This document shows, piece by piece, positions 178-22,548 of a DNA stretch of 37,625 nucleotides. Under the pieces are notes generated by a model. It was given only the letters and a program-made list of their open reading frames with translations. It did no database searches and was not told the DNA's origin. Each line of letters starts with the position of its first letter. Positions within the stretch are counted from its first letter, which is position 1. This DNA comes from a virus: IMG/VR virus record IMGVR_UViG_3300035698_005070, positions 1 through 37,625 of that record; one strand, written 5' to 3'. The position numbers were made by a program, and so were the translations under genes.

Positions 178-438
178 ATGAAATCATTTAATAATTTTTT
201 GTTGGAAAAATCCCAGAGTGTTCTTGAAACCCTTGGCAAATATGATAAACCAAATACTTTTGTGTCCTTTACAAATGACCTCAAATCTAAGGGCGAAGAA
301 CATTCGCAGAAAAAACTCGGTATAAATCCTACCAATAACTACAATACTCCCACGGGTATCTATTCATATCCTATCAAAGAAATGCTACCTACATTTGCAA
401 CAGAAACGATGTTCGCAACTGGAAGACCAATTGTGTGA
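178..438 (+). CDS. 5' part of a TGA-interrupted gene with capsid-targeting-like leader
   Basis: The 86-residue product starts MKSFNNFLLE, which resembles the cleavable capsid-targeting leader of T4 internal head proteins (LxE cleavage site). No named domain is recognised. The frame stops at TGA 436-438 but continues in the same frame, without another stop, through 1695. The sequence around the stop (RPIV-stop-IFEP) reads naturally with tryptophan there, so this and the next entry are probably one gene of about 505 codons. It follows a late promoter and GGAG, so it is likely a late, possibly packaged protein; that role is inference. Confidence 0.7.
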   Translation: MKSFNNFLLEKSQSVLETLGKYDKPNTFVSFTNDLKSKGEEHSQKKLGINPTNNYNTPTGIYSYPIKEMLPTFATETMFATGRPIV

Positions 439-510
439 ATATTTGAACCTAAAAATCTAGAAAGACTTGCCTATGGGTCTACGTATAGAGAAAAAAATCT
501 TCTTAAGGAT

Positions 511-1695
511 TTGGATATGTTGGATGATATTTTTCCCATGTATGATATTCTAGGACTTCTTGAATCCATTCCTAATCAATATAAAAAGAATGCTCTTCAA
601 AAATACTGGTCCATTACTCGGATCTTGGCCATGAAGATTGCGGAAAAGAGACATCTCAGCAATCGTTATGTTCATGTGTGGGCATATATTATTAATAAGA
701 CATATGACGGGGTTATAGACGATTTGGGGGAAAAGATAATTCACCCATCTGAACCATATCAGGCAGTCTTCTTTAATAGGTCTCATATTAAAGTTCTTGA
801 TCATATTGACAGGACTCTCCATAAATCCTCATCATGGGATGAGGATAAGATTGAATCACGCGCTGTCATTATGCCTAAAATTATGGAGTTCCTTAACAAC
901 GGGAAGGATATACCGGAGGCTCTGAAAATTAAGGTTGTAGAACTGGGACTAGATCCTTATTACCAACAACTTAATAATATACGTAACTTTGAAGAACCCC
1001 CAAGTTGGACAAGTGACTCCAAAACGTGGAATATGTTTTTGAATAGTCCCAACTATGTTCCGGGGAAGTTTATTTTTTATGATCTTTCTTATTCTATAAT
1101 AGAAAAATTGGACCGTGCTCCATATAACCAATCAGTAAAATTGTGGGTGGGACAAGACATGGAGAACTCCAATCATCCTTCTTATGTTACTCTTATTAAT
1201 AACTATAAACTCAATTCTAATACCTATTGGTCGTTTTTTAATATGTTCATGTACTTAAAGATGCACACCAAACCATATACTAATATAGATAAATACCCCA
1301 ACTTCGTATTGAAGAATATTAATAATCTCGATCCATATATTAAATCCAATAATACACTTATGCATATTATCGCCACGGATTATTTTGAGTTTCCCTATTG
1401 GTCATCCTCCGAACCCAATAGTACCTTCTTTAAGGCACTTCCAACATTTCTAAAAATGAGTAACATGCAAGGGCATGATCCCCAAAACATTAAGTTGCGA
1501 AATGCCATAATTACACGTCTTGGAAAGATGTATACGTCTAGTAGTGGCCTCTTTCTTAAAAACCACTGGACAAATAAATTAACGGCCATTATCATACAGT
1601 CATACAAGTGGGGATATGTTGACAAGGACTTTTTAAAGGTATTTTCTGACATGGGGATAGCCGACAGGCAGAAATTTGATAAGTATATCGCTTAA
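511..1695 (+). CDS. 3' part of the TGA-interrupted gene; large protein of unknown function
   Basis: This 394-residue frame opens at ATG 511 but is in phase with the gene starting at 178. Coding-like sequence fills the gap between TGA 438 and this ATG (IFEPKNLERLAYGS and so on). No promoter or ribosome site precedes ATG 511, so independent expression looks unlikely. The product is rich in Asn, Tyr and Trp, with no recognised catalytic motif, signal peptide or membrane segment. It ends with TAA just before the late promoter of the next gene. I cannot assign a function. Confidence 0.75.
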   Translation: MDMLDDIFPMYDILGLLESIPNQYKKNALQKYWSITRILAMKIAEKRHLSNRYVHVWAYIINKTYDGVIDDLGEKIIHPSEPYQAVFFNRSHIKVLDHIDRTLHKSSSWDEDKIESRAVIMPKIMEFLNNGKDIPEALKIKVVELGLDPYYQQLNNIRNFEEPPSWTSDSKTWNMFLNSPNYVPGKFIFYDLSYSIIEKLDRAPYNQSVKLWVGQDMENSNHPSYVTLINNYKLNSNTYWSFFNMFMYLKMHTKPYTNIDKYPNFVLKNINNLDPYIKSNNTLMHIIATDYFEFPYWSSSEPNSTFFKALPTFLKMSNMQGHDPQNIKLRNAIITRLGKMYTSSSGLFLKNHWTNKLTAIIIQSYKWGYVDKDFLKVFSDMGIADRQKFDKYIA

Positions 1696-1698
1696 ATA
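1692..1698 (+). promoter_or_regulatory. T4-type late promoter
   Basis: TTAAATACTA overlaps the TAA of the preceding gene and lies 11 bases before the ATG at 1710. Confidence 0.6.
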
Positions 1699-1709
1699 CT
1701 ACCATATAT

Positions 1710-2174
1710 ATGAAATCATTTAATACATTTTATAATCGGGTCATCCTTGAGGCGGGAAAGAGGGAAAGACTCTACAGGTATCTTCCAATGTTTCAGAAAT
1801 CGATTCAAGCTGACCCCACGGAGGAGAATCGATTTAAACTGGTTATTAATAGGGCAATCTCAGTATTTAAAAGGGATGATCTTCTCATATTGTTTCTCAA
1901 GTTTTATAGAGAGGACTATAATAGATTTAAAATGGAGGATGCTTTTACCCGAGCACTGACAATTCTTCAAGCCTTTCAGGATACTTTTGCAAATGCCATT
2001 CCCCAGATTGATAATTATAGAGTACAACCAGATGACACTCTTCGGGGAGTAGCTGCAAAGTTTAATGCTTTTCGGAGGGAATATAGTCCTACTAATTGGA
2101 TTGATATTACAGAGGATAATACTTCCTATCAATTCCTCACTTTTCCCGATGGGTTCTCTTGGTTTGATTTATAA
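1710..2174 (+). CDS. 5' part of a frameshifted gene with capsid-targeting-like leader
   Basis: The product starts MKSFNTFYNRVILE, the second MKSFN leader in the window, with an ILE cleavage-type site. 154 residues are read before TAA at 2172. The C-terminal sequence (FLTFPDGFSWFDL) leads directly, after a -1 shift, into the frame at 2180-2578. I recall that this combination, aromatic segment then C..EA.AMSHCGN then DTILSLR, occurs as one polypeptide in large-phage proteins of unknown function. Together with the next entry the gene would be about 289 residues. Confidence 0.7.
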   Translation: MKSFNTFYNRVILEAGKRERLYRYLPMFQKSIQADPTEENRFKLVINRAISVFKRDDLLILFLKFYREDYNRFKMEDAFTRALTILQAFQDTFANAIPQIDNYRVQPDDTLRGVAAKFNAFRREYSPTNWIDITEDNTSYQFLTFPDGFSWFDL

Positions 2175-2177
2175 ATA
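2170..2177 (+). promoter_or_regulatory. T4 late-promoter consensus at the frame break
   Basis: TATAAATACTAT matches the T4 late consensus exactly, two bases before ATG 2180. It sits where the preceding frame ends, so it could drive a separate downstream gene or be a chance match inside a frameshifted gene. Confidence 0.4.
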
Positions 2178-2179
2178 CT

Positions 2180-2578
2180 ATGGACTGTTCTAAAGAGGCA
2201 ACAGCAATGAGTCACTGCGGGAATTCTGGACAGGAGAATATAGGGGACACCATTTTATCTCTGCGGAAAGTAAAAAAATCAAAGGGTAAAACATGGGCTC
2301 GACCATCCCTTACTTTTATTTTGGATAAGGACCATGATCTTGGGGAGATGCGGGGCCGTGCCAATACAATGCCAAAAGTACAATACCACCCCCACATTAT
2401 GGCTTTGCTGCTTTATAAGGAACCATCTGGGGAATATTTGGTTCGGACAATAACTGGGATTAATTATTCTCAAGATAGGACATTTAATATCTCGCAATTA
2501 TCTCCCAAATATCAGAAGATGCTTCAGGAGAAGAGACCGGAACTTTTTACTCAGAATAAGTCTTTCCGTCAAACTTGA
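2180..2578 (+). CDS. 3' part of the frameshifted gene; AMSHCGN/DTILSLR protein
   Basis: The 132 residues carry a Cys/His motif (CSKEATAMSHCGNSG) followed by GDTILSLRK, a strand with LTFI, and LGEMRGRAN. No enzyme family can be named with confidence. It is one base out of phase with 1710-2174. A missing T in the TTT at 2168-2170 or a -1 ribosomal shift at GAT-TTA-TAA would join them as ...WFDxINTMDCSKEA. Its TGA lies inside the convergent minus-strand gene, giving a 32-base tail-to-tail overlap. Confidence 0.7.
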   Translation: MDCSKEATAMSHCGNSGQENIGDTILSLRKVKKSKGKTWARPSLTFILDKDHDLGEMRGRANTMPKVQYHPHIMALLLYKEPSGEYLVRTITGINYSQDRTFNISQLSPKYQKMLQEKRPELFTQNKSFRQT

Positions 2579-2996
2579 CACCCTCCAGATCATATAGATC
2601 CTTGCAAAAACTTACGAATCGCTTCTGGGAAGTAGTAGATGTGTCTTCCCTATATCCTGTATTATAATATACATTATGTCCTCCCCCAATTGCTACCCGG
2701 ATATACCCATTTCGAAACATCTCTTTATATACCCCATTATAGTCTGGATATTCTTGTCCCCGGTCTTTTAGGTATTTGTTGGCCCTAGAGATAATATCTG
2801 ATGCCCCTTCATCATGTCCATAAAATGGGACCTCTAAAAAATTACCACTCCGGTCCACCCAGAATCCATATGGCTTTTTATCTGGTAGATCTTGGACACT
2901 CGTTGACATCCTCTTTACCTTGGCAGGTATTTCGTCAAGGACGCCCTCTTCCAAAAGGAATTGTCCCATTCTTTCATATAGTTCATTGAATAACAT
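2547..2996 (-). CDS. small paralogue A with capsid-targeting-like leader
   Basis: Start chosen at MLFNELY (2996), four bases after the TAA of the upstream paralogue; a Met six codons earlier lies inside that gene. The leader MLFNELYERMGQFLLE ends in an LLE cleavage-type site. The body has PYGFWVDRSGNF and a C-terminal SFCKDLYDL, both shared with the neighbouring gene at 3001-3441, so this is a tandem duplication. Function unknown. The leader, and transcription from the shared late promoter at 3450, suggest a virion-packaged protein (inference). Confidence 0.8.
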   Translation of the reverse strand: MLFNELYERMGQFLLEEGVLDEIPAKVKRMSTSVQDLPDKKPYGFWVDRSGNFLEVPFYGHDEGASDIISRANKYLKDRGQEYPDYNGVYKEMFRNGYIRVAIGGGHNVYYNTGYREDTSTTSQKRFVSFCKDLYDLEGVKFDGKTYSE

Positions 2997-3000
2997 AATT

Positions 3001-3441
3001 TTAATTGAATACATCTGATTGTAATACTTCTCTCATATCATATAATTCCTTACAGAAGTTTAGGAATTTTGATTGGCTTTGGGTGGCTTTTTTTGCCTTC
3101 CTTCCAGTATTATACAAAATAGCCCCATTTCTACAGACGACTCTAATCCAATTATTCTGATACATTTCTGAATATGGGGATGGATTTGGCGCATAATGAA
3201 TGCCCCGATCATTGTAATATTTCTGGGATCTCGCAATTATGGCTTCTGCTCTTGGTGAGTGGCCCATCATAGGCACTGGAGTGAAGTTCCCAGAATGATC
3301 TACCCAGAATCCATATGGTGGATCATCTGGGATATCTTGAATACTTATAGATACCTTCAAAAGCTTTCTTGGAACATCTCCCAACATGCCTTCCAAAAGG
3401 TATTCTTCCATGTATTGTCTATAAAGTTTTTCGAATAACAT
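3001..3441 (-). CDS. small paralogue B with capsid-targeting-like leader
   Basis: 146 residues starting MLFEKLYRQYMEEYLLE, with LLE then Gly as a likely prohead-protease site. It shares SIQDIPDDPPYGFWVDHSGNF and FCKELYDM blocks with the gene downstream. It is preceded by AAAAGG and a late promoter, TTAAATATT, a few bases from its ATG. It is the first gene of a two-gene late unit. No catalytic motif is recognised. Confidence 0.82.
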   Translation of the reverse strand: MLFEKLYRQYMEEYLLEGMLGDVPRKLLKVSISIQDIPDDPPYGFWVDHSGNFTPVPMMGHSPRAEAIIARSQKYYNDRGIHYAPNPSPYSEMYQNNWIRVVCRNGAILYNTGRKAKKATQSQSKFLNFCKELYDMREVLQSDVFN

Positions 3442-3449
3442 CCTTTTAA

Positions 3450-3473
3450 TATTTAATCTCAGAAGATTAAATA
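3450..3473. promoter_or_regulatory. palindromic divergent late promoter pair
   Basis: TATTTAATCT-caga-AGATTAAATA is a perfect 10-base inverted repeat. The left arm read on the minus strand is TTAAATA, facing 3441; the right arm is TTAAATA on the plus strand, facing 3482. Two late promoters are therefore built back to back. Confidence 0.65.
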
Positions 3474-3481
3474 TCCCTACA

Positions 3482-4219
3482 ATGTATATTTCACGTTTTA
3501 AGATTGGGGACCTCTACAACAATATGCTTCTGAATGAGGTTCATGCTCAACATGTGTCGAATGTCATGAATTTCCTTCGGGACAACCCCCAAGGAACATC
3601 ATTTGATAATATATTTGGACCTAATAAGAACCGCATCATTATTCCCATAACGGATTCCCATATTTATAAGGAGCTTCTTGCGGCCATCAGACACATCCCA
3701 AACTTTAAGAAGTTTGACCCAAACACCGGAGAGGTTATCCGGGAAATCAGAATCGATCCAAAATATGGGAAAGGAGATCACAAAGAACAGAAGATCAAAT
3801 TGGGGAAGGCCATTCAAAGTCTGAAAATCTCATCCTCAGACAAGAAGAGATTTCTGGGGTGGTATGCCAAATATAATTCGTATATTTCAGATATGGACAA
3901 ACTGGAGAATTATTCCATAGTTCTTTCTCGGAATCCTATTGATGTTCTTCGAATGGGGGAGATTGGTAATTCTGGTCATTGCCACCAACAGGGAAACGAT
4001 TTTTTTCATTGTGCAATTCAGGAGGCAAAGACGGGGGGTCCAATTGCCTTTGTTGTTTATACCGATCAATTGGAGACCATATCAGAAGAAGATTTCCAAA
4101 CAGAGGAGATCTTCAACGACCGGGATCGGGGGGGGGGGTCATTGACGCAATATCCCGTATTCGGATTCGTAAGTTCTTTGATATCACTGACGATCAGGAC
4201 ATTGCGATTCCCGAAATGA
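3482..4219 (+). CDS. 5' part of a G-run-frameshifted large gene with leader
   Basis: Starts MYISRFKIGDLYNNMLLNE, with an LNE cleavage-type site, after late promoter 3467-3473. Coding sense lasts to about residue 215. The segment SRNPIDVLRM...SGHCHQQGNDFFHCA...GPIAFVVY looks conserved and catalytic-like (Cys/His), but I cannot name the family. At the G run 4128-4138 the sensible frame moves by one base into the next entry. The residues after the run here are out of frame. The full product would be about 681 residues. Confidence 0.75.
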   Translation: MYISRFKIGDLYNNMLLNEVHAQHVSNVMNFLRDNPQGTSFDNIFGPNKNRIIIPITDSHIYKELLAAIRHIPNFKKFDPNTGEVIREIRIDPKYGKGDHKEQKIKLGKAIQSLKISSSDKKRFLGWYAKYNSYISDMDKLENYSIVLSRNPIDVLRMGEIGNSGHCHQQGNDFFHCAIQEAKTGGPIAFVVYTDQLETISEEDFQTEEIFNDRDRGGGSLTQYPVFGFVSSLISLTIRTLRFPK

Positions 4220-5526
4220 AAGTCTATGGTAATACTGTTCCCGGTTTCTATGAGAGTATTAAGAACTATCTAAGGCGTAAACAAAATCTCAGTATCCCAG
4301 ATATGATTTCCAAATATGAGCACAATGAACTGACTAAGACCGGGGGGTCCGCCTCCGACACCGATGATTCCTCTCTCTTTGACGAATACTTTGACACCAC
4401 CGATTTTCCCGCTTGGGATCTGGAACACCGGGATTCAGACGAACAAGAAAATCTATATGGGGTCATGGAAGAAGAACTTCAGGCCATTGATCAGCTCTAT
4501 ACCAATAGATTAAAATATTCATCTGTGGGGTATTATTTGTATGAGGATGACATAGATGGCATTCCCCATTATTCTGCACGCGCAGAAATCACCATTGATT
4601 TGGGAGATGCTGACCTCTCTGAAGTCGAAGAAGAACTTGACCCACATACCATTCAACAATTGGAGAGATTCACAACCGATCCGACTGCCCCCCAGTGGAC
4701 AAGACGTGTTCCCAATGAAATGGGAACACGAGAACTCACCCTCCAATACAAAAAATTCTTAGAATTAATTGAAAAGAACACACATCTTATGTATATTGTC
4801 AAAATGGAAGTAGATGTTCATTCTGGGACAATAACATTCGGGATCAACAGTGACGGAACATCAGATGAAGAGATCGCATCAGATGACGTAGATGATTATG
4901 ACACTATGTATCGAGATATGGTAGACCTCGAAAAACACTATAATGAGATTCGTTTTGGTGTTTTTCAAGCCCTCATCGAAGTTGGACTTGTTCCTTCGGA
5001 TAACATACCAAATGTGGAAAGTTCCATTGATAATCTAAAAACATTTACCTATGACGCGGGAGATAACTCATTTTCCACTACTACAGTTATCGGCAATATT
5101 TCATCAGAGTCTGATCTGGCGTTTAACTCTACCAATTCCGCGATGTTCAAAAACCGTTTCGAACATGCTCTCTATAAGTATCTTGAATACTATTATAAGG
5201 CCCCTGTCACTGACGAACATCCAGAGTTTGAGGGATTTGGGGAGTCAACAGAACAAATAAATATGCGGGGAGCATATAATATTTCTATATCGCTGGACAT
5301 TGCTTTCTCAGATGTTATTACTATAGATCGTAAAATACTGGAAGCAGTCGTAAAAATATATCCGGAACTCTATAGTACCAAGGGATGGAATGTTGTAGCC
5401 TTTCTTGATGCCAATTATGATGATGTGATTGGCATCATGCGCACTATCGTCGCCATCCCATATCTGGGACTTCGGACACAACAGGCACAGAATCTAGAAA
5501 AAGTATATGGTAGATTCTTTACTTGA
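4138..5526 (+). CDS. 3' part of the G-run-frameshifted large gene
   Basis: After the 11-G run the coding frame continues from GTC-ATT-GAC (VIDAISRIRIRKFFDI) for 462 residues. An independent start could be ATG 4216, but no promoter or ribosome site precedes it. The product is acidic and Tyr-rich, without recognised motifs or membrane segments. It ends with TGA, overlapping the end of the convergent metalloprotease gene by 8 bases. Either one more G, two fewer Gs, or a -1 ribosomal shift on the G run would restore the full frame. Confidence 0.75.
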   Translation, partial: VIDAISRIRIRKFFDITDDQDIAIPEMKVYGNTVPGFYESIKNYLRRKQNLSIPDMISKYEHNELTKTGGSASDTDDSSLFDEYFDTTDFPAWDLEHRDSDEQENLYGVMEEELQAIDQLYTNRLKYSSVGYYLYEDDIDGIPHYSARAEITIDLGDADLSEVEEELDPHTIQQLERFTTDPTAPQWTRRVPNEMGTRELTLQYKKFLELIEKNTHLMYIVKMEVDVHSGTITFGINSDGTSDEEIASDDVDDYDTMYRDMVDLEKHYNEIRFGVFQALIEVGLVPSDNIPNVESSIDNLKTFTYDAGDNSFSTTTVIGNISSESDLAFNSTNSAMFKNRFEHALYKYLEYYYKAPVTDEHPEFEGFGESTEQINMRGAYNISISLDIAFSDVITIDRKILEAVVKIYPELYSTKGWNVVAFLDANYDDVIGIMRTIVAIPYLGLRTQQAQNLEKVYGRFFT

Positions 5527-6643
5527 GATGTTTTCTCTGAGTTCTATTTGGTAGCTCCCGTTGTCCTGTTGTTGCCATGATCTCAAGTATTCTTTTCTTA
5601 TGGTATGGTTCCAATTTTGCGAATCTTTCCATCCCAGTTGCCCACATTTCTTTATGGTTTATCATCCCATAGCCAGATACCCATTTGACTAATCGAGACA
5701 ATTCATGTCCCACTTCTCGCTTATTCATTGTGAAGGACGTTTCAGTCTTTGCTCTCTCCTCCATTTGTGCTCTATACTCGTCCTCTGCTTTTTTAATGCT
5801 TATTTCAAATGCCCGCTGTTTTAATTCCGGAGATTGCGCTTCCATATTCAGATAATGGAAGATCAGTCCCTGTATATTATATGCCACATGTGTCTTATAT
5901 GATCCAAGGTTGAGATCAACCTTTAGGTCTTTTTCAAGATAATCTAATCTCTTCGAGACAAATATTTGAACTTTCTTTTTAGAATAATTCTCATAAGTTA
6001 ATAGAGTTTGAAATAGATGGCGCATATCAGCGAAGAACTTCGTAATGTGTTTTTGAAAGTCTGGGACCATTTTTGACTTATGTAATAACTCTTCTTGGGA
6101 ATCATAGATATTGTCATAGTATTTCTTCACAGCATCTCTAAAGCCCTGTGAATTATTATTCATCCAGATGTGTCCCCATTCGTGGACAATTGTTTCTGTG
6201 AGTCTTTCTCCAATTATTTTGGTTTCTTTTCCCTTTGTTCTATTAACCGCGAGATCCACTATTTTAGTATAGGGCAATCCAATATGTGGAGTACTATATC
6301 TTTTTCCTGATGCGCTTAGTTTCGTGCCATCTGGATTTCCATAGGCATATCCCTGCACATTCTCAGTATCTCCTTTTTGCCGTCTATCATTTCGAAAGTC
6401 TCGGAAGACCACATTCACATGCTGTGTGGGAAATCCAATCTTATGAATCTCTTTTCGAGCATTGGCGAATGCCTTATAGATTTCATCTTCCGATAACATC
6501 CACATCATTCGAATGTCCTTTTTGCTTCTCCATAATTCCGAGTCCACGAATATAGAGAACATTGGCACATCATCAATATGTGTGTTCTCTCCCAGATCCC
6601 GGAATCTAGCTTCCATTAAGTTTGTTAGTTCTTCAAAGTTCAT
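5519..6643 (-). CDS. zinc metalloprotease-like protein (HEWGH)
   Basis: 374 residues with VHEWGHIWMNN; residues 154-158 are the HExxH zinc-binding and catalytic motif, followed by DAVKKYYD. This fits a gluzincin-like endopeptidase, but I cannot place the third ligand or the exact family. The N-terminus MNFEELTNLME offers an LME prohead-protease-type site, so it may be a packaged protease (inference). There is no signal peptide. It is transcribed divergently from 6683 behind an AATAAATA box and ends TAA, overlapping the preceding gene's stop by 8 bases. Confidence 0.8.
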   Translation of the reverse strand: MNFEELTNLMEARFRDLGENTHIDDVPMFSIFVDSELWRSKKDIRMMWMLSEDEIYKAFANARKEIHKIGFPTQHVNVVFRDFRNDRRQKGDTENVQGYAYGNPDGTKLSASGKRYSTPHIGLPYTKIVDLAVNRTKGKETKIIGERLTETIVHEWGHIWMNNNSQGFRDAVKKYYDNIYDSQEELLHKSKMVPDFQKHITKFFADMRHLFQTLLTYENYSKKKVQIFVSKRLDYLEKDLKVDLNLGSYKTHVAYNIQGLIFHYLNMEAQSPELKQRAFEISIKKAEDEYRAQMEERAKTETSFTMNKREVGHELSRLVKWVSGYGMINHKEMWATGMERFAKLEPYHKKRILEIMATTGQRELPNRTQRKHLK

Positions 6644-6662
6644 AATATTGTGCTTATAATAA

Positions 6663-6675
6663 TATTTATTAAATA
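6663..6675. promoter_or_regulatory. overlapping divergent late promoters
   Basis: TATTTATTAAATA gives ATAAATA on the minus strand (toward 6643) and TTAAATA on the plus strand (toward ATG 6683, 7 bases further on). Confidence 0.5.
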
Positions 6676-6682
6676 TACCTAT

Positions 6683-6871
6683 ATGAAATCATTTAATGAC
6701 TTTTTTAAAAAGGTGGACGATAATATCAAATATGACCCAGAACAATTGGAAATGGGCATCAAGGTTGAACACGAACATACAACCAATGTGGACATTGCTG
6801 AAGTAATTGCGAAGCATCATTTGGCGGAAGACCCGGAATATTATTCCAAGCTAAAGACTTTAAACCTATAA
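6683..6871 (+). CDS. small MKSFNDF-leader protein
   Basis: Start set at MKSFNDFFKK, which matches the leaders at 178 and 1710; upstream in-frame Mets fall inside the promoter. 62 residues, charged, containing DPEQLEMGIKVEHEHTTN. This pattern is reminiscent of phage proteins annotated only as conserved (with D/E-H repeats). No clear LxE site follows the leader within 20 residues. Ends TAATAA. Function unknown. Confidence 0.7.
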   Translation: MKSFNDFFKKVDDNIKYDPEQLEMGIKVEHEHTTNVDIAEVIAKHHLAEDPEYYSKLKTLNL

Positions 6872-7108: not shown

Positions 7109-7384
7109 ATGGATAGTCTGATATTAATTGGTATATGTTTCGTATTAAAATACGGTAGTATATTAAACTTCATCAGAAAGCCCCTAACGAAATATAAGTT
7201 TTTCAAAGAATTATTTTCATGTACACTCTGTCTCGGTTTTCACATAGGCTTTTGGATAGCGATCTTTTCTGGCGCACCCTCACTCTTGGCTGTCTTGCAG
7301 TTAGCATTCTTCTCTTCGGCCATATGCTGGTTAGCTGATCATTTTATAATGGTCTGCCAAACATACATCTATGGTCGCGACTGA
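7109..7384 (+). CDS. small integral membrane protein
   Basis: 91 residues with hydrophobic stretches at about 3-20, 40-57 and 60-80, separated by short charged loops, and a Cys pair plus Gly-Phe-x2-Gly-Phe-Trp (FSCTLCLGFHIGFW). This resembles small phage/bacterial inner-membrane proteins with a CxxCxGFW signature, whose role is unknown. It ends TGA, converging on the CCA-enzyme gene with a 16-base overlap. Confidence 0.75.
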   Translation: MDSLILIGICFVLKYGSILNFIRKPLTKYKFFKELFSCTLCLGFHIGFWIAIFSGAPSLLAVLQLAFFSSAICWLADHFIMVCQTYIYGRD

Positions 7385-8346
7385 GAGACCATCTGCTTCG
7401 CTTTTTTGTACACCATTTGTTCGGTGACATCTTTTTGCGCCAATAATAGTTCAGCGGCCCAGTCCTGAAGCTTAGGTAAAACGATACCAATTTGTTTCCG
7501 GTCTTGTTGCAGTTGTGGAAACCATTCCATAAGTCTATTTCCATCTATGAGGGCCGCAATCTGTTTCTTCAGGGCATTAGCTCCACCGGGAATAGTATTC
7601 AATTTAGCTTCGGCTCTTTCGATCTTGGCCTCAAACTCCGCAGGATCGAACATTCCCGGTCCTCTTGATGCTTCGTCGCAATAGGATACAGCTTTCACAA
7701 GATCCCAAGAAGGATCGTGGATCAATTTCCGAAGGGTTTTCACCTTCAGATTATCGAGATTATGTATGTGCATATGTCTCTCCACAGCTTTTAGAATATT
7801 GCTCTTGTCATTTGGTCCTAGATTAGAAAAACGTAGTCTCTTGAAGATTTCTTGAACAATCGGAACCCCGGCGGATTCATGTCCATGATAATTACTATAT
7901 CCTCTCTTGTTGGTTCCTCTCGTCGTGGCCTTTCCAATGTCATGAAACATCACTGCTAAGTTTACAATAGGATCATTATATGGTGAAACCTTGAGACATT
8001 CATGGATGTGTCCAAGAACTTGGGAATCTCCTTCTGGATGATGGAGAGGGTCATGGTCGAATCCTTCCATTGATGTAAACTCAGGAAGAATATTATCTAG
8101 GATTCCCGCTTCTTGTAATTTATATAAGAAGTTTGACAGAGTTCTACCAGACTTGGCGGCTTTATAAAACTCTTGGGCAATACTCTCCTGTGATATCAGA
8201 GCAGGATTCAACAATAATCCCTTGAGTTCTTTTGCAGCACTTAGAGTGTTTGGCTCAATTTCAAAGTCCATCTTCGCTGCAAATCGAAATACCCTAAGCA
8301 CTCTAGTTGCGTCCTCCTTAAAGCGTTTCTTGGCATCCCCAACTGC
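7369..8346 (-). CDS. CCA-adding enzyme / poly(A) polymerase-like, C-terminal part with HD domain
   Basis: After the frame break at 8346-8349 the product continues AVGDAKKRFKEDATRVLRVFRFAAKM, the RNA-binding neck of class II tRNA nucleotidyltransferases. It is followed by an HD phosphohydrolase-like domain (HHPEGDSQVLGHIHECL, MFHDIGKATT, NYHGHESAG). This domain order matches bacterial multifunctional CCA proteins. It ends in TAG. With the preceding part it makes about 498 residues after removing one base. It would repair or add CCA tails, relevant because most tRNAs here lack an encoded CCA. Confidence 0.8.
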   Translation of the reverse strand, partial: AVGDAKKRFKEDATRVLRVFRFAAKMDFEIEPNTLSAAKELKGLLLNPALISQESIAQEFYKAAKSGRTLSNFLYKLQEAGILDNILPEFTSMEGFDHDPLHHPEGDSQVLGHIHECLKVSPYNDPIVNLAVMFHDIGKATTRGTNKRGYSNYHGHESAGVPIVQEIFKRLRFSNLGPNDKSNILKAVERHMHIHNLDNLKVKTLRKLIHDPSWDLVKAVSYCDEASRGPGMFDPAEFEAKIERAEAKLNTIPGGANALKKQIAALIDGNRLMEWFPQLQQDRKQIGIVLPKLQDWAAELLLAQKDVTEQMVYKKAKQMVSQSRP

Positions 8347-8866
8347 CCCGTATGACTTTGTTCTGCAAGTCCTCCAGACCCCCTTGGAAGTCCACAATGC
8401 GCCCTCTATAATCCAGGCCGAAGCTATTGATCGTGATGTCCCGACGCTTAGTGTCCGTTTCAAAACTATCCACCTCTGTTGAGACGTTTGATTGTCTTCC
8501 CATTTGACTTTGGGCATCCTCTCGGAACTTGGCAAGATCATATGTATAGTTATTGAAGAGGATCGTATAGACTGGCTGGGAGTCATTCTTTGAGATGTTC
8601 CTAAGTTCAAAATGTTCCGATAAATCTTCAAATGAAATGTTGGTTGCCATATCAACATCATCAATGTCATTTCCCATTAAGAGGTCTCGGGAAACGCCCC
8701 CAACAATATAGATCTCGCCCTCTGGGTATAGAGAACCAATCTTCTCCATTAATTCGAGGGCAACTCGCAATTCTTCAGAAGATGCAATTGCTTTTTCCCA
8801 TTTTTCGGAAAAGTCATCGACATTATAATTTACATTTTCGACGAAGAAGTTTTTGAATAATTTCAT
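8318..8866 (-). CDS. CCA-adding enzyme-like, N-terminal nucleotidyltransferase part
   Basis: Residues 55-72 (VGGVSRDLLMGNDIDDVD) give the GG and metal-binding DxD signature of the Pol beta superfamily; RRDITINSFG at 141-150 is the next class II motif. Sensible coding ends near 8347; the last residues to TAA 8318 are out of frame because of one extra base in the CCCC run at 8346-8349 (GGGG on the coding strand). The N-terminus MKLFKNFFVE resembles the packaging leaders seen elsewhere. ATGA overlaps the stop of the upstream RlpA-like gene. Confidence 0.82.
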   Translation of the reverse strand: MKLFKNFFVENVNYNVDDFSEKWEKAIASSEELRVALELMEKIGSLYPEGEIYIVGGVSRDLLMGNDIDDVDMATNISFEDLSEHFELRNISKNDSQPVYTILFNNYTYDLAKFREDAQSQMGRQSNVSTEVDSFETDTKRRDITINSFGLDYRGRIVDFQGGLEDLQNKVIRGSWGCQETL

Positions 8867-17569: not shown

Positions 17570-17573
17570 ACGG

Positions 17574-17647
17574 TGCGGGGAACGGGAATCGAACCCGTGT
17601 ATCAGAGATTTAGAGTCCCTTGCTTCACCATTTTTAGCTATCCCCGC
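17574..17647 (-). tRNA. amber suppressor tRNA (CTA)
   Basis: Acceptor GCGGGGA/TCCCCGC, D arm GCT..AGC, anticodon stem AGGGA/TCTCT with 7-base loop CTCTAAA, hence anticodon CUA reading UAG, with U33 and A37 both normal. T arm ACGGG/CCCGT, loop TTCGATT. Short variable loop, A discriminator; followed by CCG, so CCA must be added. Charging amino acid unknown. The anticodon arm equals that of tRNA-Cys (11146) outside the anticodon. Confidence 0.88.
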
Positions 17648-18056: not shown

Positions 18057-18081
18057 TCCAGAAAGGAATACATTATCTTTT

Positions 18082-18101: not shown

Positions 18102-18115
18102 TACCTACGTGTTTT

Positions 18116-18460
18116 TCATACAGATTTTTTATATCTCATGGCAGATTTTTTAGGAGTCGAACTATCCAAATTTACCGATATATAATTATCACGTATTTTG
18201 GTTACGTCCCAGCCCCAGTTTTTTAAAATTTCCATTGTAATACCAGCATGTATTGAATTATGGGTGTTCTCCACAAGAAATGTGTAATTCAATACATCTA
18301 CTCCCAAATCTTTAGCAAACATGAATTCCTCGTCATATTTGTGACATCGGCTCGCAACTATCCATAAGTAAAATCGATCATCGGGAGTGTGTAGTGTATA
18401 GATATCGTCTCTATAAGTATTTGATACTATGTCTATTTGTTTCTCCTTTGTATCTTTCAT
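18116..18460 (-). CDS. hypothetical protein
   Basis: 114 residues (MKDTKEKQIDIVSNTYRDDI...), alpha/beta, with FYLWIVASRCHKYDEEF and NTHNSIHAGITMEIL. No family recognised. Overlaps the 2H phosphoesterase gene by 4 bases (ATGA) and so is probably co-translated with it. Confidence 0.72.
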   Translation of the reverse strand: MKDTKEKQIDIVSNTYRDDIYTLHTPDDRFYLWIVASRCHKYDEEFMFAKDLGVDVLNYTFLVENTHNSIHAGITMEILKNWGWDVTKIRDNYISVNLDSSTPKKSAMRYKKSV

Positions 18461-18993
18461 ACAGAGTATTTTGTCTTTTTACTATCGGCATTCGAGAAGA
18501 TGATCGTATTTGACGTTTTGGCCTTATTAAAGATTTTCGATTTATGTTTAATATACTTCTTTCCCGTGCCCGGATTCAAGTATGCCACAGTTAGATGTGG
18601 TTTATATTCAGGATAATTGTTGGTGAAATCTAATGTCTGTGTGCATTCTTTGTTCCATTTCCTAAGATCCTTAGACTTGACCGTGCATTTTAGAACATCG
18701 TAATCATCGGTTTCAAACAATGACAACCCAGTTAGTTCATATTCCATCGGCTCAAATTCTATTTCCTCTTTAACCGCATCTGGATTTTGTTCGTGGATAC
18801 CATATAGAATCGTGATGTGGAACTCTTTCTCTAAACCAGATCCGTCCTCATCATATAAGTCCTCTTTGTCAATCTCGGATTGAATCGCTTTGATATCTTT
18901 CCCAAGATCCTTACAGTCTAACATCAGACACGAATAAGATCTCTTCTTCGAGTTCTCCAAGAGCATTTGAAAGTATTCCAAAAATGGTTTCAT
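18457..18993 (-). CDS. 2H phosphoesterase-like protein with packaging-type leader
   Basis: 178 residues. Two HxT motifs of the 2H (LigT/2'-5' RNA ligase) superfamily: EFHITILYGIH (59-61) and YKPHLTVAYL (132-134). Phage members include Acb1, which degrades CBASS cyclic nucleotides; other members process RNA ends. The leader MKPFLEYFQMLLE looks like a capsid-targeting peptide, and TTAAATA lies 6 bases before ATG, so expression is probably late. An injected counter-defence enzyme is plausible but inferred. Confidence 0.78.
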   Translation of the reverse strand: MKPFLEYFQMLLENSKKRSYSCLMLDCKDLGKDIKAIQSEIDKEDLYDEDGSGLEKEFHITILYGIHEQNPDAVKEEIEFEPMEYELTGLSLFETDDYDVLKCTVKSKDLRKWNKECTQTLDFTNNYPEYKPHLTVAYLNPGTGKKYIKHKSKIFNKAKTSNTIIFSNADSKKTKYSV

Positions 18994-18999
18994 ATTCTT

Positions 19000-19006
19000 T
19001 ATTTAA
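19000..19006 (-). promoter_or_regulatory. late promoter before 2H phosphoesterase
   Basis: Minus-strand TTAAATA, then AAGAAT, then ATG 18993; directly abuts the encoded CCA of tRNA-Tyr. Confidence 0.6.
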
Positions 19007-19009
19007 TGG

Positions 19010-19388: not shown

Positions 19389-19704
19389 CTCCTGATCCTG
19401 CGATCACATCACGTTCTTTTCGACTATTGAGTTTATCAATATTCATTTGGCAGATTTCCTCTAGCGTATATCCAAGATCATTTGCCAATGCCGCGCAATA
19501 CCAAAGACAATCTCCGGTTTCTTTTGCAAGTTCTTTTTTCTTTTCGTCTGTATAGACGCCCTCATTATCGCGCATTACTTTTTTTACTTTACCCGCGACT
19601 TCTCCTGCTTCTGATGCAAGCCCTAAAGTTGGGTAAGTGATCTTGTTTCCTGCGTCATAAACCGCCGTAGCGATTGCCATCTTTTGGTATGTGTTTACTG
19701 TCAT
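19378..19704 (-). CDS. MazG-like nucleotide pyrophosphohydrolase
   Basis: 108 residues. YPTLGLASEAGEVAGKVKKVMRD and ELAKETGDCLWYCAALANDLG give the ExxE and ExxD metal-binding helices of the all-alpha NTP pyrophosphatase fold, then LEEICQMNIDKLNSRKER. Full domain length for single-domain phage MazG proteins. Would hydrolyse (d)NTPs or related alarmones to monophosphates; exact substrate unknown. Overlaps its neighbours by a few bases. Confidence 0.85.
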   Translation of the reverse strand: MTVNTYQKMAIATAVYDAGNKITYPTLGLASEAGEVAGKVKKVMRDNEGVYTDEKKKELAKETGDCLWYCAALANDLGYTLEEICQMNIDKLNSRKERDVIAGSGDER

Positions 19705-19934
19705 TTTTTGTTTATTGTTTCGAAAAGTTCATCAACTTCTCCATGACGAGAAGGATCTAATTTTGATTTTACCATATTTATTATCTTTGTTCTGATTTCT
19801 TTATTGTTGAATTTTTGTTTAAGAGGGTTTTCTAATTCTAGAACGTCGCCAATTAAATCTTCATCACCATCCACAATATAACATTTTGGTTGAAATGTAT
19901 ATGCATCTACGCATTTTATTAATTTTAGCTTCAT
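19701..19934 (-). CDS. small hypothetical protein
   Basis: 77 residues (MKLKLIKCVDAYTFQPKCYIV...), an N-terminal beta hairpin then charged helices. Coupled to both neighbours through 4-base overlaps (ATGA). Its helical C-terminus (KLDPSRHGEVDELFETI) resembles the end of the upstream gene (SEVDTLLDNF), hinting at distant paralogy. Confidence 0.68.
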   Translation of the reverse strand: MKLKLIKCVDAYTFQPKCYIVDGDEDLIGDVLELENPLKQKFNNKEIRTKIINMVKSKLDPSRHGEVDELFETINKK

Positions 19935-20176
19935 GATTCTTTATAAAAATTGTCTAAGAGTGTGTCTACTTCTGATTCCAAGGTTGGATCAGCCAACTCA
20001 TATTTCACAGCCGCCTTAACTTCTTCGATTGCTTCTTCGCGTGTCATCTTAACAGAAACCATGATATTGTCAACCACGTCTGATTCAAATCTCGCGAATT
20101 GCTGTCCATCTTTTCGAAAGACAATTCGAAATCTTTCGAATGTCCCTTCAATTAATTCTTTTTCTATAGTAATCAT
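19931..20176 (-). CDS. small acidic hypothetical protein
   Basis: 81 residues (MITIEKELIEGTFERFRIVF...), beta-rich start and acidic helical end. Coupled to the next gene by ATGA. No family recognised. Confidence 0.68.
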   Translation of the reverse strand: MITIEKELIEGTFERFRIVFRKDGQQFARFESDVVDNIMVSVKMTREEAIEEVKAAVKYELADPTLESEVDTLLDNFYKES

Positions 20177-20403
20177 CTTTTTTACATAAAATTTCTACAA
20201 ATTCTCCAAATTGGAATTGAATTGCCTTTTTTAATGCATCCTCCAGTCTGTCATTTTTCTTCTATAATAGCTTTACAAGCATCCCGTAAGTCAATTGTTG
20301 TCTGATTGCAGAGGGAACCAGAATCTATTGTATCGTCTGTAAGCATTTTTAATGCTTTTTTTAGGAGCATATTTTCTCCCTTAAAATATATTGTATTATT
20401 CAT
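20148..20403 (-). pseudogene. small gene with one-base frame break
   Basis: From ATG 20403: MNNTIYFKGENMLLKKALKM...DACKAIIEEK, TGA at 20251. Removing one A from the AAAAA before it continues as NDRLEDALKKAIQFQFGEFV to TGA at 20148, giving 84 residues that look coding throughout. The extended end overlaps the next gene by 29 bases. As read, only 50 residues (20251-20403) are open. Confidence 0.5.
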
Positions 20404-20407
20404 AGTG

Positions 20408-20578
20408 TTAATTGAAAATGTATGTGCATTTAAATCTCAGAGGGTGGTCGGTCTTTGCAATTCTTCTCGATTTGATCAGGCAAGACCCAAATCCGATTAT
20501 ATATTTAAAAATAAAATCAGAACATTGCATCGGGAGTTCCTCTTCTAAAATTTGAAAAGTGTGTGTGAATGTTTTCAT
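20408..20578 (-). CDS. 56-residue protein with packaging-type leader
   Basis: MKTFTHTFQILE followed by EELPMQCSDF; the leader closely resembles T4 internal-protein leaders (MKTxxxF...xE). The body is short and basic (KSRRIAKTDHPLRFKC). It starts 11 bases after tRNA-fMet behind TTAAACAC. Function unknown; may be a small internal head protein. Confidence 0.55.
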   Translation of the reverse strand: MKTFTHTFQILEEELPMQCSDFIFKYIIGFGSCLIKSRRIAKTDHPLRFKCTYIFN

Positions 20579-20588
20579 GTGTTTAATG

Positions 20589-20662
20589 TTGCGGGGATGG
20601 GATTTGAACCCACATGCCTGACGTTATGAGCGTCCCTACTTACCAGTCGTAATCACCCCGCG
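20589..20662 (-). tRNA. initiator tRNA-fMet (CAT)
   Basis: 5' CGCGGGGTG and 3' CCCCGCAA give the unpaired C1:A72 end that marks bacterial initiator tRNAs; anticodon loop CTCATAA. The anticodon stem (GACG/CGTC) lacks the usual three G:C pairs. No full CCA encoded. Confidence 0.8.
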
Positions 20663-20670
20663 ATTATATG

Positions 20671-20743
20671 TACACCTACGGGGACTTGAACCCACGATCT
20701 GATGGTTGAAAACCATCTGTCCTTACCTTTAGACGATAAGTGC
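20671..20743 (-). tRNA. tRNA-Glu (TTC)
   Basis: Anticodon stem GATGG/CCATC with loop TTTTCAA, acceptor GCACTTA/TAGGTGT. The T stem has two mismatches at its base, so it may be somewhat degenerate. Confidence 0.78.
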
Positions 20744-20753
20744 TTTCACCCGT

Positions 20754-20781
20754 ATTATACACGGGTTTTAATCAATGTCAA
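20754..20781 (-). promoter_or_regulatory. consensus sigma70 promoter for tRNA-Glu/fMet
   Basis: TTGACA, 16 bases (TTGATTAAAACCCGTG), TATAAT on the minus strand, about 10 bases before tRNA-Glu. Confidence 0.88.
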
Positions 20782-20845
20782 TATTTTTATTAATCTTTCA
20801 TCACAATTCAAGTTTTTCTGGCAAACTTCGTTTCACCATCTCAAA

Positions 20846-20877
20846 GTTAAAGGCTCCGTTTTATTGGAGCCTTAATC
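20846..20877. terminator. rho-independent terminator, possibly bidirectional
   Basis: AAGGCTCC, loop GTTTTATT, GGAGCCTT (8 pairs, extended by TTAA/TTAA). Lies between the VWA gene and the tRNA-Glu promoter, so it insulates the two minus-strand units. Confidence 0.7.
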
Positions 20878-20888
20878 TTATTTCGGTT

Positions 20889-20970
20889 TTAATCAAACAA
20901 AATCGCTCCGTCAACATTCCATCTCTGGATTGCAGGCATCATAGAGTCCGTGCTGTTTTGTGAAGTACAT
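20889..20970 (-). pseudogene. very small broken reading frame
   Basis: MYFTKQH from ATG 20970, then, after dropping one G from the GG, DSMMPAIQRWNVDGAILFD-stop. A CTAAATA box precedes it. Only 26 residues; could be coincidence. Confidence 0.3.
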
Positions 20971-20983
20971 TTTGTAAAGTTAT

Positions 20984-21646
20984 TTAGCCTTTAAGTGTTT
21001 CTTTTTTGTCTTCGTTGAGAATTTCTCTGTCTTCATCAGAGAAGGTAGCCATTGCAGTATACTCTTCTACAGTGCTTGCGCATCTCATACCGGTAAGTTT
21101 ATTGGATTGTAGACCGACTGTAGCACTATACTTATCAGTGGAATACGTTGAGGTGCTATCCGGGGAGAATCCCCAGGTCTGGGCTTCATTCACTGCCTCT
21201 AAGGTAGCCCCAAGGAACATAAACTGCCAAGCATATTTTTCGGTTTGCTCGGTGATCATTTTCTTAATGGCATCCTTGGTAAACTCTTTGGACGCATTCT
21301 CTTGCCCGTCGGTTTGTACCATCATAATCACTTTATCGGGACGATCCTTCTTCTTAAGTTTCGCAAGTTCTTCTCCAACAGTGGAGATTGTCTTACCAAT
21401 AGCATCCAAAAGCGCAGTCATTCCTCTGGGAGATACTCTTAGTTCTTCGTCAACCTCTTGAATATCCGTGAAGTCTTCAAGTAATTCATAATCAGTATCA
21501 AAAGCCGCGACAGTAAAAGTACATTTACCATCTAATGCTTTGTTGTCTTTTATTAATTGTTTATATCCGCCAACAACGTCCTTCCAACCAGTGAACATTG
21601 AGCCGCTTCTGTCTATTACCATCGCTATGTGTGTATAATCATTCAT
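20984..21646 (-). CDS. von Willebrand factor A domain protein
   Basis: 220 residues: one VWA domain. MIDAS residues DRSGSM (12-17), the Thr in RGMTALLDAIG, and VQTDGQEN are all present, so metal-dependent adhesion should be intact. No signal peptide, so it is cytoplasmic. Phage VWA proteins of this type have no established role; there is no neighbouring MoxR-type ATPase in the window. Driven by a perfect sigma70 promoter and closed by the terminator at 20846. Confidence 0.85.
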   Translation of the reverse strand: MNDYTHIAMVIDRSGSMFTGWKDVVGGYKQLIKDNKALDGKCTFTVAAFDTDYELLEDFTDIQEVDEELRVSPRGMTALLDAIGKTISTVGEELAKLKKKDRPDKVIMMVQTDGQENASKEFTKDAIKKMITEQTEKYAWQFMFLGATLEAVNEAQTWGFSPDSTSTYSTDKYSATVGLQSNKLTGMRCASTVEEYTAMATFSDEDREILNEDKKETLKG

Positions 21647-21655
21647 GTCAAATGG

Positions 21656-21683
21656 ATTATAACACCGAACTTGGCGTTGTCAA
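21656..21683 (-). promoter_or_regulatory. consensus sigma70 promoter for the VWA gene
   Basis: TTGACA, 16 bases, TATAAT on the minus strand; its start TTGACAACGC is shared with the tRNA-Gly promoter at 14362. Confidence 0.88.
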
Positions 21684-21686
21684 GCT

Positions 21687-21983
21687 TCAATCGTCAGAAA
21701 ATTTTTCATCCGTGAATTCCCCGTATTGTGCTAAAATTGGTTGAATTCTTTGTGCTAGATCTTCCAAATCTTTAATTGGATTCATGTCCACACCCTCGGC
21801 AGAAATATTTATTTTTTGTCTTGTTTGATTATAATAATTAATAACACCCTGTAGACAATATTCAATAACGGATGTGGCATCTTCTACTCTACGTTCAGCC
21901 TCTCGCATCATTTGGGATTTTGGAGGACCAGATTTATTTAATTGAATATCTTCGTATAGTTCTTGTATTTTTGTCAGGTTCAT
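21687..21983 (-). CDS. small protein with ELYE leader
   Basis: 98 residues starting MNLTKIQELYED, an LYE prohead-protease-type site within the first 11 residues. Mostly helical (REAERRVEDATSVIEYCLQGVINYY). Function unknown. Its leader sequence TTCAAAATT-ATGAA is duplicated upstream of the gene at 22222. Confidence 0.7.
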   Translation of the reverse strand: MNLTKIQELYEDIQLNKSGPPKSQMMREAERRVEDATSVIEYCLQGVINYYNQTRQKINISAEGVDMNPIKDLEDLAQRIQPILAQYGEFTDEKFSDD

Positions 21984-22030
21984 AATTTTGAAGCGTTATT
22001 TTTTGTCAATTCCGAGAATTTCATCTCTAT

Positions 22031-22222
22031 TCACTGTATGGTACCGAGTTGCCCCATGACCACACCTCTGTAAAGTGTACCGTTGATTTTAAACCTTAAG
22101 GTATCCCCATATGTTATACCTTTAGATTTTTTGGGTTCTTCTTTAAAATTATACTCTTGTATAGTATTAGGAGTTTGATACATACCATCGTACAATAAAT
22201 TTAGGTTATCAATGTCATTCAT
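22031..22222 (-). CDS. small hypothetical protein
   Basis: 63 residues (MNDIDNLNLLYDGMYQTP...GDTLRFKINGTLYRGVVMGQ). The end looks like a small beta barrel. ATG overlaps the previous stop. After its TGA the frame stays open for 17 codons to the next gene's ATGA, which may be chance. Confidence 0.65.
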   Translation of the reverse strand: MNDIDNLNLLYDGMYQTPNTIQEYNFKEEPKKSKGITYGDTLRFKINGTLYRGVVMGQLGTIQ

Positions 22223-22548
22223 AATTTTGAAATATTATTTTTTAAAGATTTGAGGGCGAATAAGGCAGAGCTATCAGAATCTGACAATTTCTGGATCTCA
22301 TAATCAATCAATTTCAAAACAGAATTAGATGGCACTGTAGAGACCTCCTCTTGCTCGTAGGGCATCTGGTTGGAGTTTGCGCCACTGATGTTGTAAGTGG
22401 AGTCCTGCGGCGCTCCAAAGGGCTGTGCGCGACGCATACGGATGCTGTCCTTTGTTTCTGATGCTGTTGGAACCCCTTGGACTGTGGGGGCATTATACCT
22501 ACCCGGATTCCATCCCTCATAAAGTTCTCCAAGTTCTTGTATCCACAT
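22219..22548 (-). CDS. hypothetical protein with ELYE leader
   Basis: 109 residues from MWIQELGELYEG, chosen because TAAATA-N5-ATG matches the spacing seen at other late genes; an alternative ATG is at 22563. The leader has an LYE site. The body is low-complexity and Ser/Asn-rich, with a helical end. Possibly a minor internal or virion protein; unproven. Confidence 0.68.
   Translation of the reverse strand: MWIQELGELYEGWNPGRYNAPTVQGVPTASETKDSIRMRRAQPFGAPQDSTYNISGANSNQMPYEQEEVSTVPSNSVLKLIDYEIQKLSDSDSSALFALKSLKNNISKL

What the first reader, a model, noticed from the sequence alone, without database searches (positions are those of the whole stretch)
178..22548. Family of proteins with capsid-targeting-like leaders (candidate injected effectors)
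At least eleven otherwise unrelated proteins start with a short amphipathic leader ending in a gp21-type site: MKSFNNFLLE (178), MKSFNTFYNRVILE (1710), MLFNELYERMGQFLLE (2996), MLFEKLYRQYMEEYLLE (3441), MYISRFKIGDLYNNM then LLNE (3482), MNFEELTNLME (6643), MKLFKNFFVE (8866), MKPFLEYFQMLLE (18993), MKTFTHTFQILE (20578), MNLTKIQELYE (21983), MWIQELGELYE (22548). T4 internal proteins and Alt carry comparable leaders (MKTxxxF...xE) removed by gp21. Many of these genes have late promoters. The set includes a metalloprotease, a nucleotidyltransferase-HD protein and a 2H phosphoesterase, so the phage may package and inject an enzyme cocktail.
Basis: partly seen in the sequence, partly recalled or inferred. 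Interest (0 to 1): 0.82.

Follow-up and report, generated by a model that had tools for sequence, protein, structure and literature searches.

The report
Capsid-targeting leaders on phage enzymes
This uncultured T4-like phage, and its relatives, put the same kind of short removable address tag that T4 uses to pack proteins into its head onto a varied set of enzymes, so these enzymes are probably carried in the virus and delivered into the bacterium with the DNA.

Summary
The observation largely holds. A hydrophobic leader followed by [LIFYVM]xE is several-fold commoner than chance in the window (11 vs 1-2 expected) and in eight related contigs. The leaders use T4's capsid-targeting spacing (aromatic at 4, hydrophobic at 7-8, Glu at 10 or later). 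A profile built without T4 ranks T4's three internal proteins 2nd, 6th and 7th of 889 T4 starts. The glutamate is specific (Asp is not enriched) and fits the clade's own gp21 site in gp23 ([LIVFYM]xE|[ASGT]). In several families leader length varies while the E| boundary stays fixed. Some homologues outside the clade start where the predicted mature protein starts. Leader genes carry the late-promoter motif more often (odds ratio 9).

Corrections: 2996 and 3441 are paralogues. 20578 is probably an over-call. 3482, 21983 and 22548 have the site but a non-canonical leader. Four of the genes are interrupted in this contig.

Best reading: T4-type capsid targeting, extended to enzymes (CCA-adding NTase-HD, Acb1-like phosphoesterase, putative metalloproteases, ART-PolyVal). 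Packaging is well supported by sequence. Injection and effector roles are inferred; no virion proteomics was available.

The parts
178..207 (+). Leader MKSFNNFLLE| of the 178 gene. Exact T4 spacing (F4, F7, L8, E10). The gene has an in-frame TGA at 436-438 and continues in the same frame to 1695.
   Evidence: 36% identity over 240 aligned positions to a 1054-aa protein in G003 (MPRFEDIFEVICE|RNQ)
160..166 (+). TTAAATA late-promoter-like element upstream of 178
1710..1751 (+). Leader MKSFNTFYNRVILE|AGK. The orthologue in G003 is a 592-aa protein with MLTFSKFYQIYLHVLEE|G; the window copy is frameshifted (1710-2174 / 2180-2578) and truncated.
1692..1698 (+). TTAAATA late-promoter-like element upstream of 1710
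2949..2996 (-). Leader MLFNELYERMGQFLLE|EG of the PYGFW-domain protein 2547-2996 (paralogue of 3001-3441)
3391..3441 (-). Leader MLFEKLYRQYMEEYLLE|GM of the PYGFW-domain protein 3001-3441. AlphaFold2 gives residues 1-16 pLDDT <50; most of the rest is 70-90.
3450..3456 (-). TTAAATA element for 3441, in a divergent pair with the element for 3482
3482..3538 (+). Non-canonical leader MYISRFKIGDLYNNMLLNE|VHA of a 691-692-aa protein family (frameshifted here near 4141-4159). Orthologues keep [LI]xE (ARLIRE|MDER, NMILKE|MDER).
3467..3473 (+). TTAAATA element for 3482
6611..6643 (-). Leader MNFEELTNLME|ARF of the HEWGH putative metalloprotease 5519-6643. M1, F3 and E11 are invariant in four homologues while leader length varies.
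6683..6712 (+). No cleavage site here; relatives have MKSFKEFYLSE and MKKFSDFFDE.
6669..6675 (+). TTAAATA element upstream of 6683
8837..8866 (-). Leader MKLFKNFFVE|NVN of the tRNA nucleotidyltransferase-HD protein. E10 is present in four of six intact orthologues; G011 and G013 differ. Gene frameshifted between 8318-8866 and 7369-8670.
18955..18993 (-). Leader MKPFLEYFQMLLE|NSKK of the Acb1-like 2H phosphoesterase 18457-18993. G002 orthologue is MINFKDYFDLVFE|NSKP. Both HxT motifs (HIT, HLT) present.
19000..19006 (-). TTAAATA late-promoter-like element upstream of 18993
20543..20578 (-).
21951..21983 (-). Non-canonical leader MNLTKIQELYE|D of 21687-21983; G011 relative MDNYFKDLSMIYE|N
22516..22548 (-). 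Non-canonical leader MWIQELGELYE|GW of 22219-22548. Relatives keep E|[GS]W across an indel (LYE|GW, LYTE|GW, IYSE|GW, LYAE|SW).
31264..31932 (-). gp21-type prohead protease; its own N-terminus ends a short stretch with ISE at residue 10 (MALKLKLISE)
29941..30822 (-). gp22-like scaffold, assigned by position between gp21 and gp23; no family hit; N-terminus MKKNLKNLFSEE
28384..29871 (-). gp23 major capsid protein; aligned maturation site CLEE|AGN after residue 56

Best explanation
These are T4-type capsid-targeting sequences. They are late-expressed N-terminal propeptides of 9-20 residues that recruit a cargo protein into the prohead core. The gp21 protease then cuts after [LIFYVM]-x-E, leaving the mature cargo free in the DNA-filled head. 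Shown by sequence: the leader consensus with T4 spacing, the Glu-specific site, agreement with the clade's own gp23 site, fixed cleavage boundaries, leaderless homologues elsewhere, and late-promoter association. Inferred: actual packaging and cleavage, ejection into the host with the DNA, and early-infection roles. Those proposed roles are tRNA 3'-end repair for the CCA-adding NTase-HD, cyclic-nucleotide degradation for the Acb1-like phosphoesterase, host-protein modification for ART-PolyVal, and host-protein cleavage for the putative metalloproteases.
For: [LI]xE peaks at residues 10 and 11 of 1914 relatives' proteins (51 and 40 vs 25 expected). T4-spacing regex: 20 vs 0.9 (shuffled) or 1.3 (body) in relatives. 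Non-seed proteins with a matching targeting half have the site in 34 of 41, vs 30% background; Asp is not enriched (0.20 vs 0.29); p = 5e-12. No excess further downstream. The profile ranks T4 ipI, ipII and ipIII 2nd, 6th and 7th of 889 T4 starts. 41 distinct gp23 rows align at [LIVFYM]xE|[ASGT], allowing for gapped rows. Boundaries fixed with variable leaders: E|YRH, E|NSK, E|[AG]-metalloprotease, E|[GS]W. Acb1-like homologues of a Maribacter phage and one huge phage start where the window's mature protein would start; phiM12 NTase starts directly at its domain. TTAAATA/TATAAATA upstream of 25/56 leader vs 143/1805 other genes, p = 7e-13; TAAATA before 36/38 gp21 and 33/34 gp5-like genes, TTAAATA/TATAAATA before 0/37 early replication genes. 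AlphaFold2 leaves residues 1-16 of 3001-3441 below pLDDT 50. Literature: CTS residues 4/7 target and 8/10 process (PMC9026906); T4 Ip1-3 are injected anti-restriction proteins (PMC12373910).
Against: No virion proteomics was available for any member of this clade. The site motif alone is common by chance. Some leader families (Zn_protease-like, MSKFL) occur in nearly all relatives and could be structural. Four leader genes are interrupted in this contig. P1' is often Lys, Asn or Glu, less typical than the Ala/Ser seen in gp23. Not every gp21 of the clade keeps the N-terminal LxE. Promoter and leader counts include orthologues, so they are not fully independent.
Confidence: 0.83

Rival explanations
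1. The leaders are real capsid-targeting propeptides, but most cargo are head, core or assembly proteins that act in the producing cell or in the particle and are not host-directed effectors.
For: The Zn_protease-like (MRSFKQYFVE|) and MSKFL families are present in nearly all relatives and lie in one block of leader genes. The 22548 family is small and broadly conserved. T4 core and shell proteins are themselves cut by gp21.
Against: Canonical leaders also sit on patchily distributed enzymes with no obvious assembly role: Acb1-like phosphoesterase, ART-PolyVal, NUDIX fusion, and on NTase-HD. In T4, leader-bearing internal proteins and Alt are ejected.
Confidence: 0.2
2. The N-terminal similarity is not a targeting signal but a by-product of start-region constraints (A-rich codons after ATG, common Lys/Phe/Glu, amphipathic first helices) plus a site that is frequent by chance.
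Against: Glu but not Asp is enriched at the predicted position, the excess ends after residue 20, boundaries are fixed while leaders change length, T4 internal proteins are recovered by a T4-free profile, and late promoters are enriched.
Confidence: 0.05
3. The leaders are amphipathic helices that bind membranes or another phage complex, and the Glu site is not cleaved.
For: Leader hydrophobic moments are higher than body segments (mean 0.46 in the window, 0.38 in relatives, vs 0.29).
Against: Does not explain the Glu specificity or the match to the gp23 maturation site of the same phages.
Confidence: 0.05

Closest known systems
T4 internal proteins IPI, IPII, IPIII with capsid targeting sequence (MKTYQEFIAE / MKTFKEF)
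   Same: Leader length, aromatic/hydrophobic spacing at 4, 7 and 8, Glu site at 10, unrelated mature domains behind one leader type; found by a profile built from this clade (PMC9026906, PMC3012670)
   Different: T4 IPs are small anti-restriction proteins (PMC12373910); here cargo includes enzymes of about 500 aa or more, and leader lengths vary from 9 to about 20
T4 Alt, injected ADP-ribosyltransferase with leader MELITELFDE
   Same: Packaged and injected enzyme with a short propeptide; a relative of the window carries an ART-PolyVal protein with a leader
   Different: Alt's leader does not match the MK.F..F profile (rank 48); ART-PolyVal is a different ART family assignment
Propeptides of phiKZ/SPN3US inner-body and ejection proteins
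   Same: Ejection proteins cut by a prohead protease after x-x-E, with shared N-termini on diverged paralogues (PMC5694885)
   Different: Mostly propeptides over 100 residues and S/A-x-E or A-x-E sites; not T4-type short leaders
Acb1 anti-CBASS phosphoesterase (T4 57B)
   Same: 2H family with two HxT motifs; Pfam Acb1 6e-9, PDB Acb1 9q2g 5e-4
   Different: T4 57B and the Maribacter phage homologue lack the leader-plus-site arrangement
Phage CCA-adding tRNA nucleotidyltransferases (e.g. Sinorhizobium phage phiM12)
   Same: PolyA_pol head and HD domains
   Different: phiM12 enzyme starts at the catalytic domain; the clade's version adds a leader and about 40 residues

Membership tests
T4-type capsid targeting sequence (CTS) | N-terminal leader of about 10-20 residues with aromatic/hydrophobic residues at 4 and 7 | tested here: met
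   Five window proteins rank 1-5 of 196 starts with a leave-window-out profile; 20 vs about 1 in relatives. Not met in this register by 2996, 3441, 3482, 6643, 21983, 22548.
T4-type capsid targeting sequence (CTS) | gp21 site hydrophobic-x-E at the leader end | tested here: met
   34 of 41 non-seed leaders vs 30% background, Glu-specific; same as clade gp23 site. 6683 lacks it.
T4-type capsid targeting sequence (CTS) | One leader type on unrelated mature domains | tested here: met
   13 multi-member clusters plus 19 singletons at a loose cut-off, a few of them spurious, with different families behind similar leaders
T4-type capsid targeting sequence (CTS) | A gp21-type prohead protease and T4-type capsid protein in the same phage | tested here: met
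   gp21 (phrog_207, 3e-54), gp23 (phrog_138, 1e-78)
T4-type capsid targeting sequence (CTS) | Leader is necessary and sufficient for packaging and is removed | not testable with these tools
   Needs virion mass spectrometry or reporter fusions
T4-type injected internal proteins | Late expression | tested here: met
   Late-promoter motif odds ratio 9.4 over other genes, calibrated on gp21/gp5-like vs replication genes; promoter activity itself not measured
T4-type injected internal proteins | Ejected into the host with the DNA | not testable with these tools
   No infection or proteomic data for this clade
Acb1 (anti-CBASS) | 2H phosphoesterase family with two HxT motifs | tested here: met
   Pfam Acb1 above cut-off; HIT and HLT in sequence
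Acb1 (anti-CBASS) | Degrades CBASS cyclic nucleotides | not testable with these tools
   Biochemistry needed; 2_5_RNA_ligase2 also matches (1.6e-8)
CCA-adding tRNA nucleotidyltransferase | PolyA_pol head plus HD domain | tested here: met
   intact in relatives, frameshifted in the window
Zinc metalloprotease (5519-6643) | HExxH motif conserved | tested here: met
   HEWGH/HEWAH conserved in four homologues
Zinc metalloprotease (5519-6643) | Known protease family or fold | tested here: inconclusive
   No Pfam/PHROG hit; low-confidence model, no PDB match at E<=0.001

The most novel reading that the evidence does not exclude
A whole clade of uncultured T4-superfamily phages uses T4-style capsid targeting as a general enzyme-delivery system. 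Each virion would carry a changeable set of enzymes (CCA-adding tRNA repair, an Acb1-like phosphoesterase, ARTs, metalloproteases, a NUDIX fusion) that act before any phage gene is expressed. The same leader device may also exist in a huge phage (MKLKKYKQFIKE| on an Acb1-like protein).
Probability: 0.6. Interest if true: 0.78.

Novelty: new variant of a known kind. Interest (0 to 1): 0.64.

Why it matters
What phages inject besides DNA is poorly known, and even in T4 two of the three internal proteins (Ip2, Ip3) were only recently tied to defence inhibition. A leader profile that works across a distant clade gives a sequence-only way to predict injected proteins in uncultured phages. If right, it predicts that tRNA-repair and cyclic-nucleotide-degrading enzymes can arrive pre-made, at the moment host defences fire.

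Tried and rejected
The LxE site alone as evidence: rejected, about 8 of 51 by chance. 20578 as a leader: rejected on its G011 homologue. Fold searches for function of the PYGFW domain and the metalloprotease: no PDB match at E<=0.001; viral library best E 1.6e-3 to an unnamed protein. PADLOC: only HD-domain cross-matches to Cas3. A protein-kinase reading of G011 L122 14910-15641 stayed unsupported (no Pfam hit, best PDB E 0.08). A check of the first 50 kb of cyanophage S-SM1 found no clear leader of this type; its virion protein list is in a supplement I could not open. The phiM9 and phiM12 papers were not held. The programmed-frameshift reading of the split genes was not pursued: relatives have single ORFs, so contig error or decay is simpler.
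Full report
What the window is. The window is a 37.6-kb IMG/VR virus record of a T4-superfamily myovirus. It has gp23, a gp21-type protease, a gp4-type head-closure protein and a scaffold-position gene, with 16 tRNAs. Its gp23 is at best about 33% identical to annotated phages, mainly cyanophages, and 70-82% identical to many other uncultured contigs, apart from one 100% copy. I fetched six near-complete relatives (G003, G005, G007, G011, G013, G015) and two shorter ones (G001, G002) in pieces.

Is the pattern more than chance? The site alone is weak: 17 of 51 window proteins against about 8 expected. The leader-plus-site pattern is strong: 11 against 2.0 (shuffled) and 1.2 (body), 0 of 1000 each. 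In 1914 relatives' proteins, [LI]xE peaks at residues 10 and 11, the position of the T4 site. The exact T4 spacing occurs 20 times against about 1. A profile of positions 2-7 was then tested against the site, which it does not see. Its seeds were chosen with Glu at 10, so I report non-seeds: 34 of 41 have [LIFMVY]xE at 9-20, against 30% background (p = 5e-12). Asp shows no excess, and no excess appears in later windows. The same kind of profile, trained without T4, puts T4 ipI, ipII and ipIII at ranks 2, 6 and 7 of 889 T4 ATG starts.

Does the site fit the phage's own protease? The gp23 maturation region of 41 distinct sequences aligns at [LIVFYM]xE|[ASGT], allowing for gapped rows. This defines the clade's specificity without using leaders and allows Phe and Tyr at P3, as in FVE and FKE leaders. 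The cleavage position itself is assigned by alignment and motif, not measured. Most gp21 N-termini carry LI[AS]E near residue 10, but some do not.

Do leaders behave as removable modules? Yes in several families. NTase-HD: MKLFKNFFVE|, MIPFKKFFFE|, MKTFSKFFKE|, MITFSKFFKE|, MITFSKFFQE|; the G011 and G013 copies differ. YRH family: 10, 15 and 17-residue leaders before a constant E|YRH. Acb1-like: MKPFLEYFQMLLE|NSKK and MINFKDYFDLVFE|NSKP. Metalloprotease: M, F and E invariant with 11-14-residue leaders. 22548 family: E|[GS]W across an indel. Homologues outside the clade can lack leaders: phiM12 NTase begins MIKYLVGG, and a Maribacter phage and one huge-phage Acb1-like protein begin where the window's mature protein would begin (MSDSKNNRRFGCLMLD, MASEDNRKFEYGC). 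In the AlphaFold2 model of 3001-3441, residues 1-16 are below pLDDT 50 and most of the rest is 70-90. The metalloprotease model is poor overall, so its low leader confidence says little.

Expression. TTAAATA or TATAAATA lies within 45 bases upstream of 25 of 56 leader genes and 143 of 1805 others (odds ratio 9.4, p = 7e-13); reversed or rearranged control motifs are rare in both sets. Calibration: TAAATA precedes 36 of 38 gp21 and 33 of 34 gp5-like genes, while TTAAATA/TATAAATA precedes 0 of 37 replication genes. gp23 lacks it (1 of 34), as expected if it is transcribed with the scaffold gene. In the window TTAAATA precedes 178, 1710, 3441, 3482, 6683 and 18993. Orthologues are counted separately, so p-values are somewhat optimistic.

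What is the cargo? NTase-HD: PolyA_pol 4e-25, solved CCA-adding enzymes 3e-28 for an intact relative. Acb1-like 2H phosphoesterase: Pfam 6e-9, PDB Acb1 5e-4, two HxT motifs. HEWxH putative metalloprotease: motif only. In relatives: ART-PolyVal 1.4e-12, NUDIX fused to the PYGFW domain, Zn_protease PF05618 3e-11, DUF5661. A Peptidase_M90 match is below cut-off. Other apparent ART-like or kinase-like proteins had no supporting hit.

How it most likely works. A late gene makes a cargo with a leader; residues 4 and 7 recruit it to the core; gp21 cuts after Glu; the cargo stays in the head and leaves with the DNA. The targeting and processing roles of residues 4/7 and 8/10 are established for T4 IPIII (PMC9026906), and ejection is established for T4 IPs and Alt. 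For this clade, packaging is inferred from sequence, and ejection and function are inferred by analogy.

Novelty. Finding internal proteins by their leader is an old idea in T-even phages (PMC12373910, citing 1994 work), and a review already suggests that CTSs let T4-like phages pack various proteins (PMC9026906). What I did not find described is this device on a CCA-adding enzyme, an Acb1-like enzyme, ART-PolyVal or HEWxH proteins, in a clade this distant. Only open-licence papers could be searched, so this is a limited claim. I file it as a new variant of a known kind.

Noticed in passing
L157:18966-19130 (T4 gene 61.1): T4 61.1 begins MKTFKEFIKE|D and is the best match in T4 to the leader profile, above the known internal proteins; it may be an unrecognised packaged protein.
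   Followed up: no
L164:283-900 (huge phage LR745206): A huge-phage Acb1-like homologue starts MKLKKYKQFIKE|SINGHKYGC, a T4-like leader in a 635-kb phage.
   Followed up: partly
window 17572-17647: ARAGORN calls a tRNA with anticodon CTA (labelled Pyl), a possible amber suppressor; TAG is a rare stop in the relatives.
   Followed up: no
window 436-438, 2171-2186, 4141-4159, 8327-8406: Four genes in the first 9 kb are interrupted although relatives have single ORFs, suggesting contig errors or local gene decay.
   Followed up: partly
window 3442-3481 and 6644-6682: Leader genes 3441/3482 and 6643/6683 are divergent pairs sharing a short intergenic stretch; between 3441 and 3482 late-promoter-like TTAAATA elements face both ways.
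   Followed up: partly
L109:1227-2072 and L091:18373-19209: The PYGFW domain of the window's paralogues is fused to a NUDIX-type domain in two relatives.
   Followed up: partly
window 24683-25336: A ClpP-like/head-maturation-protease-type gene lies next to the ribonucleotide-reductase-like gene although the phage also has a gp21-type protease.
   Followed up: no
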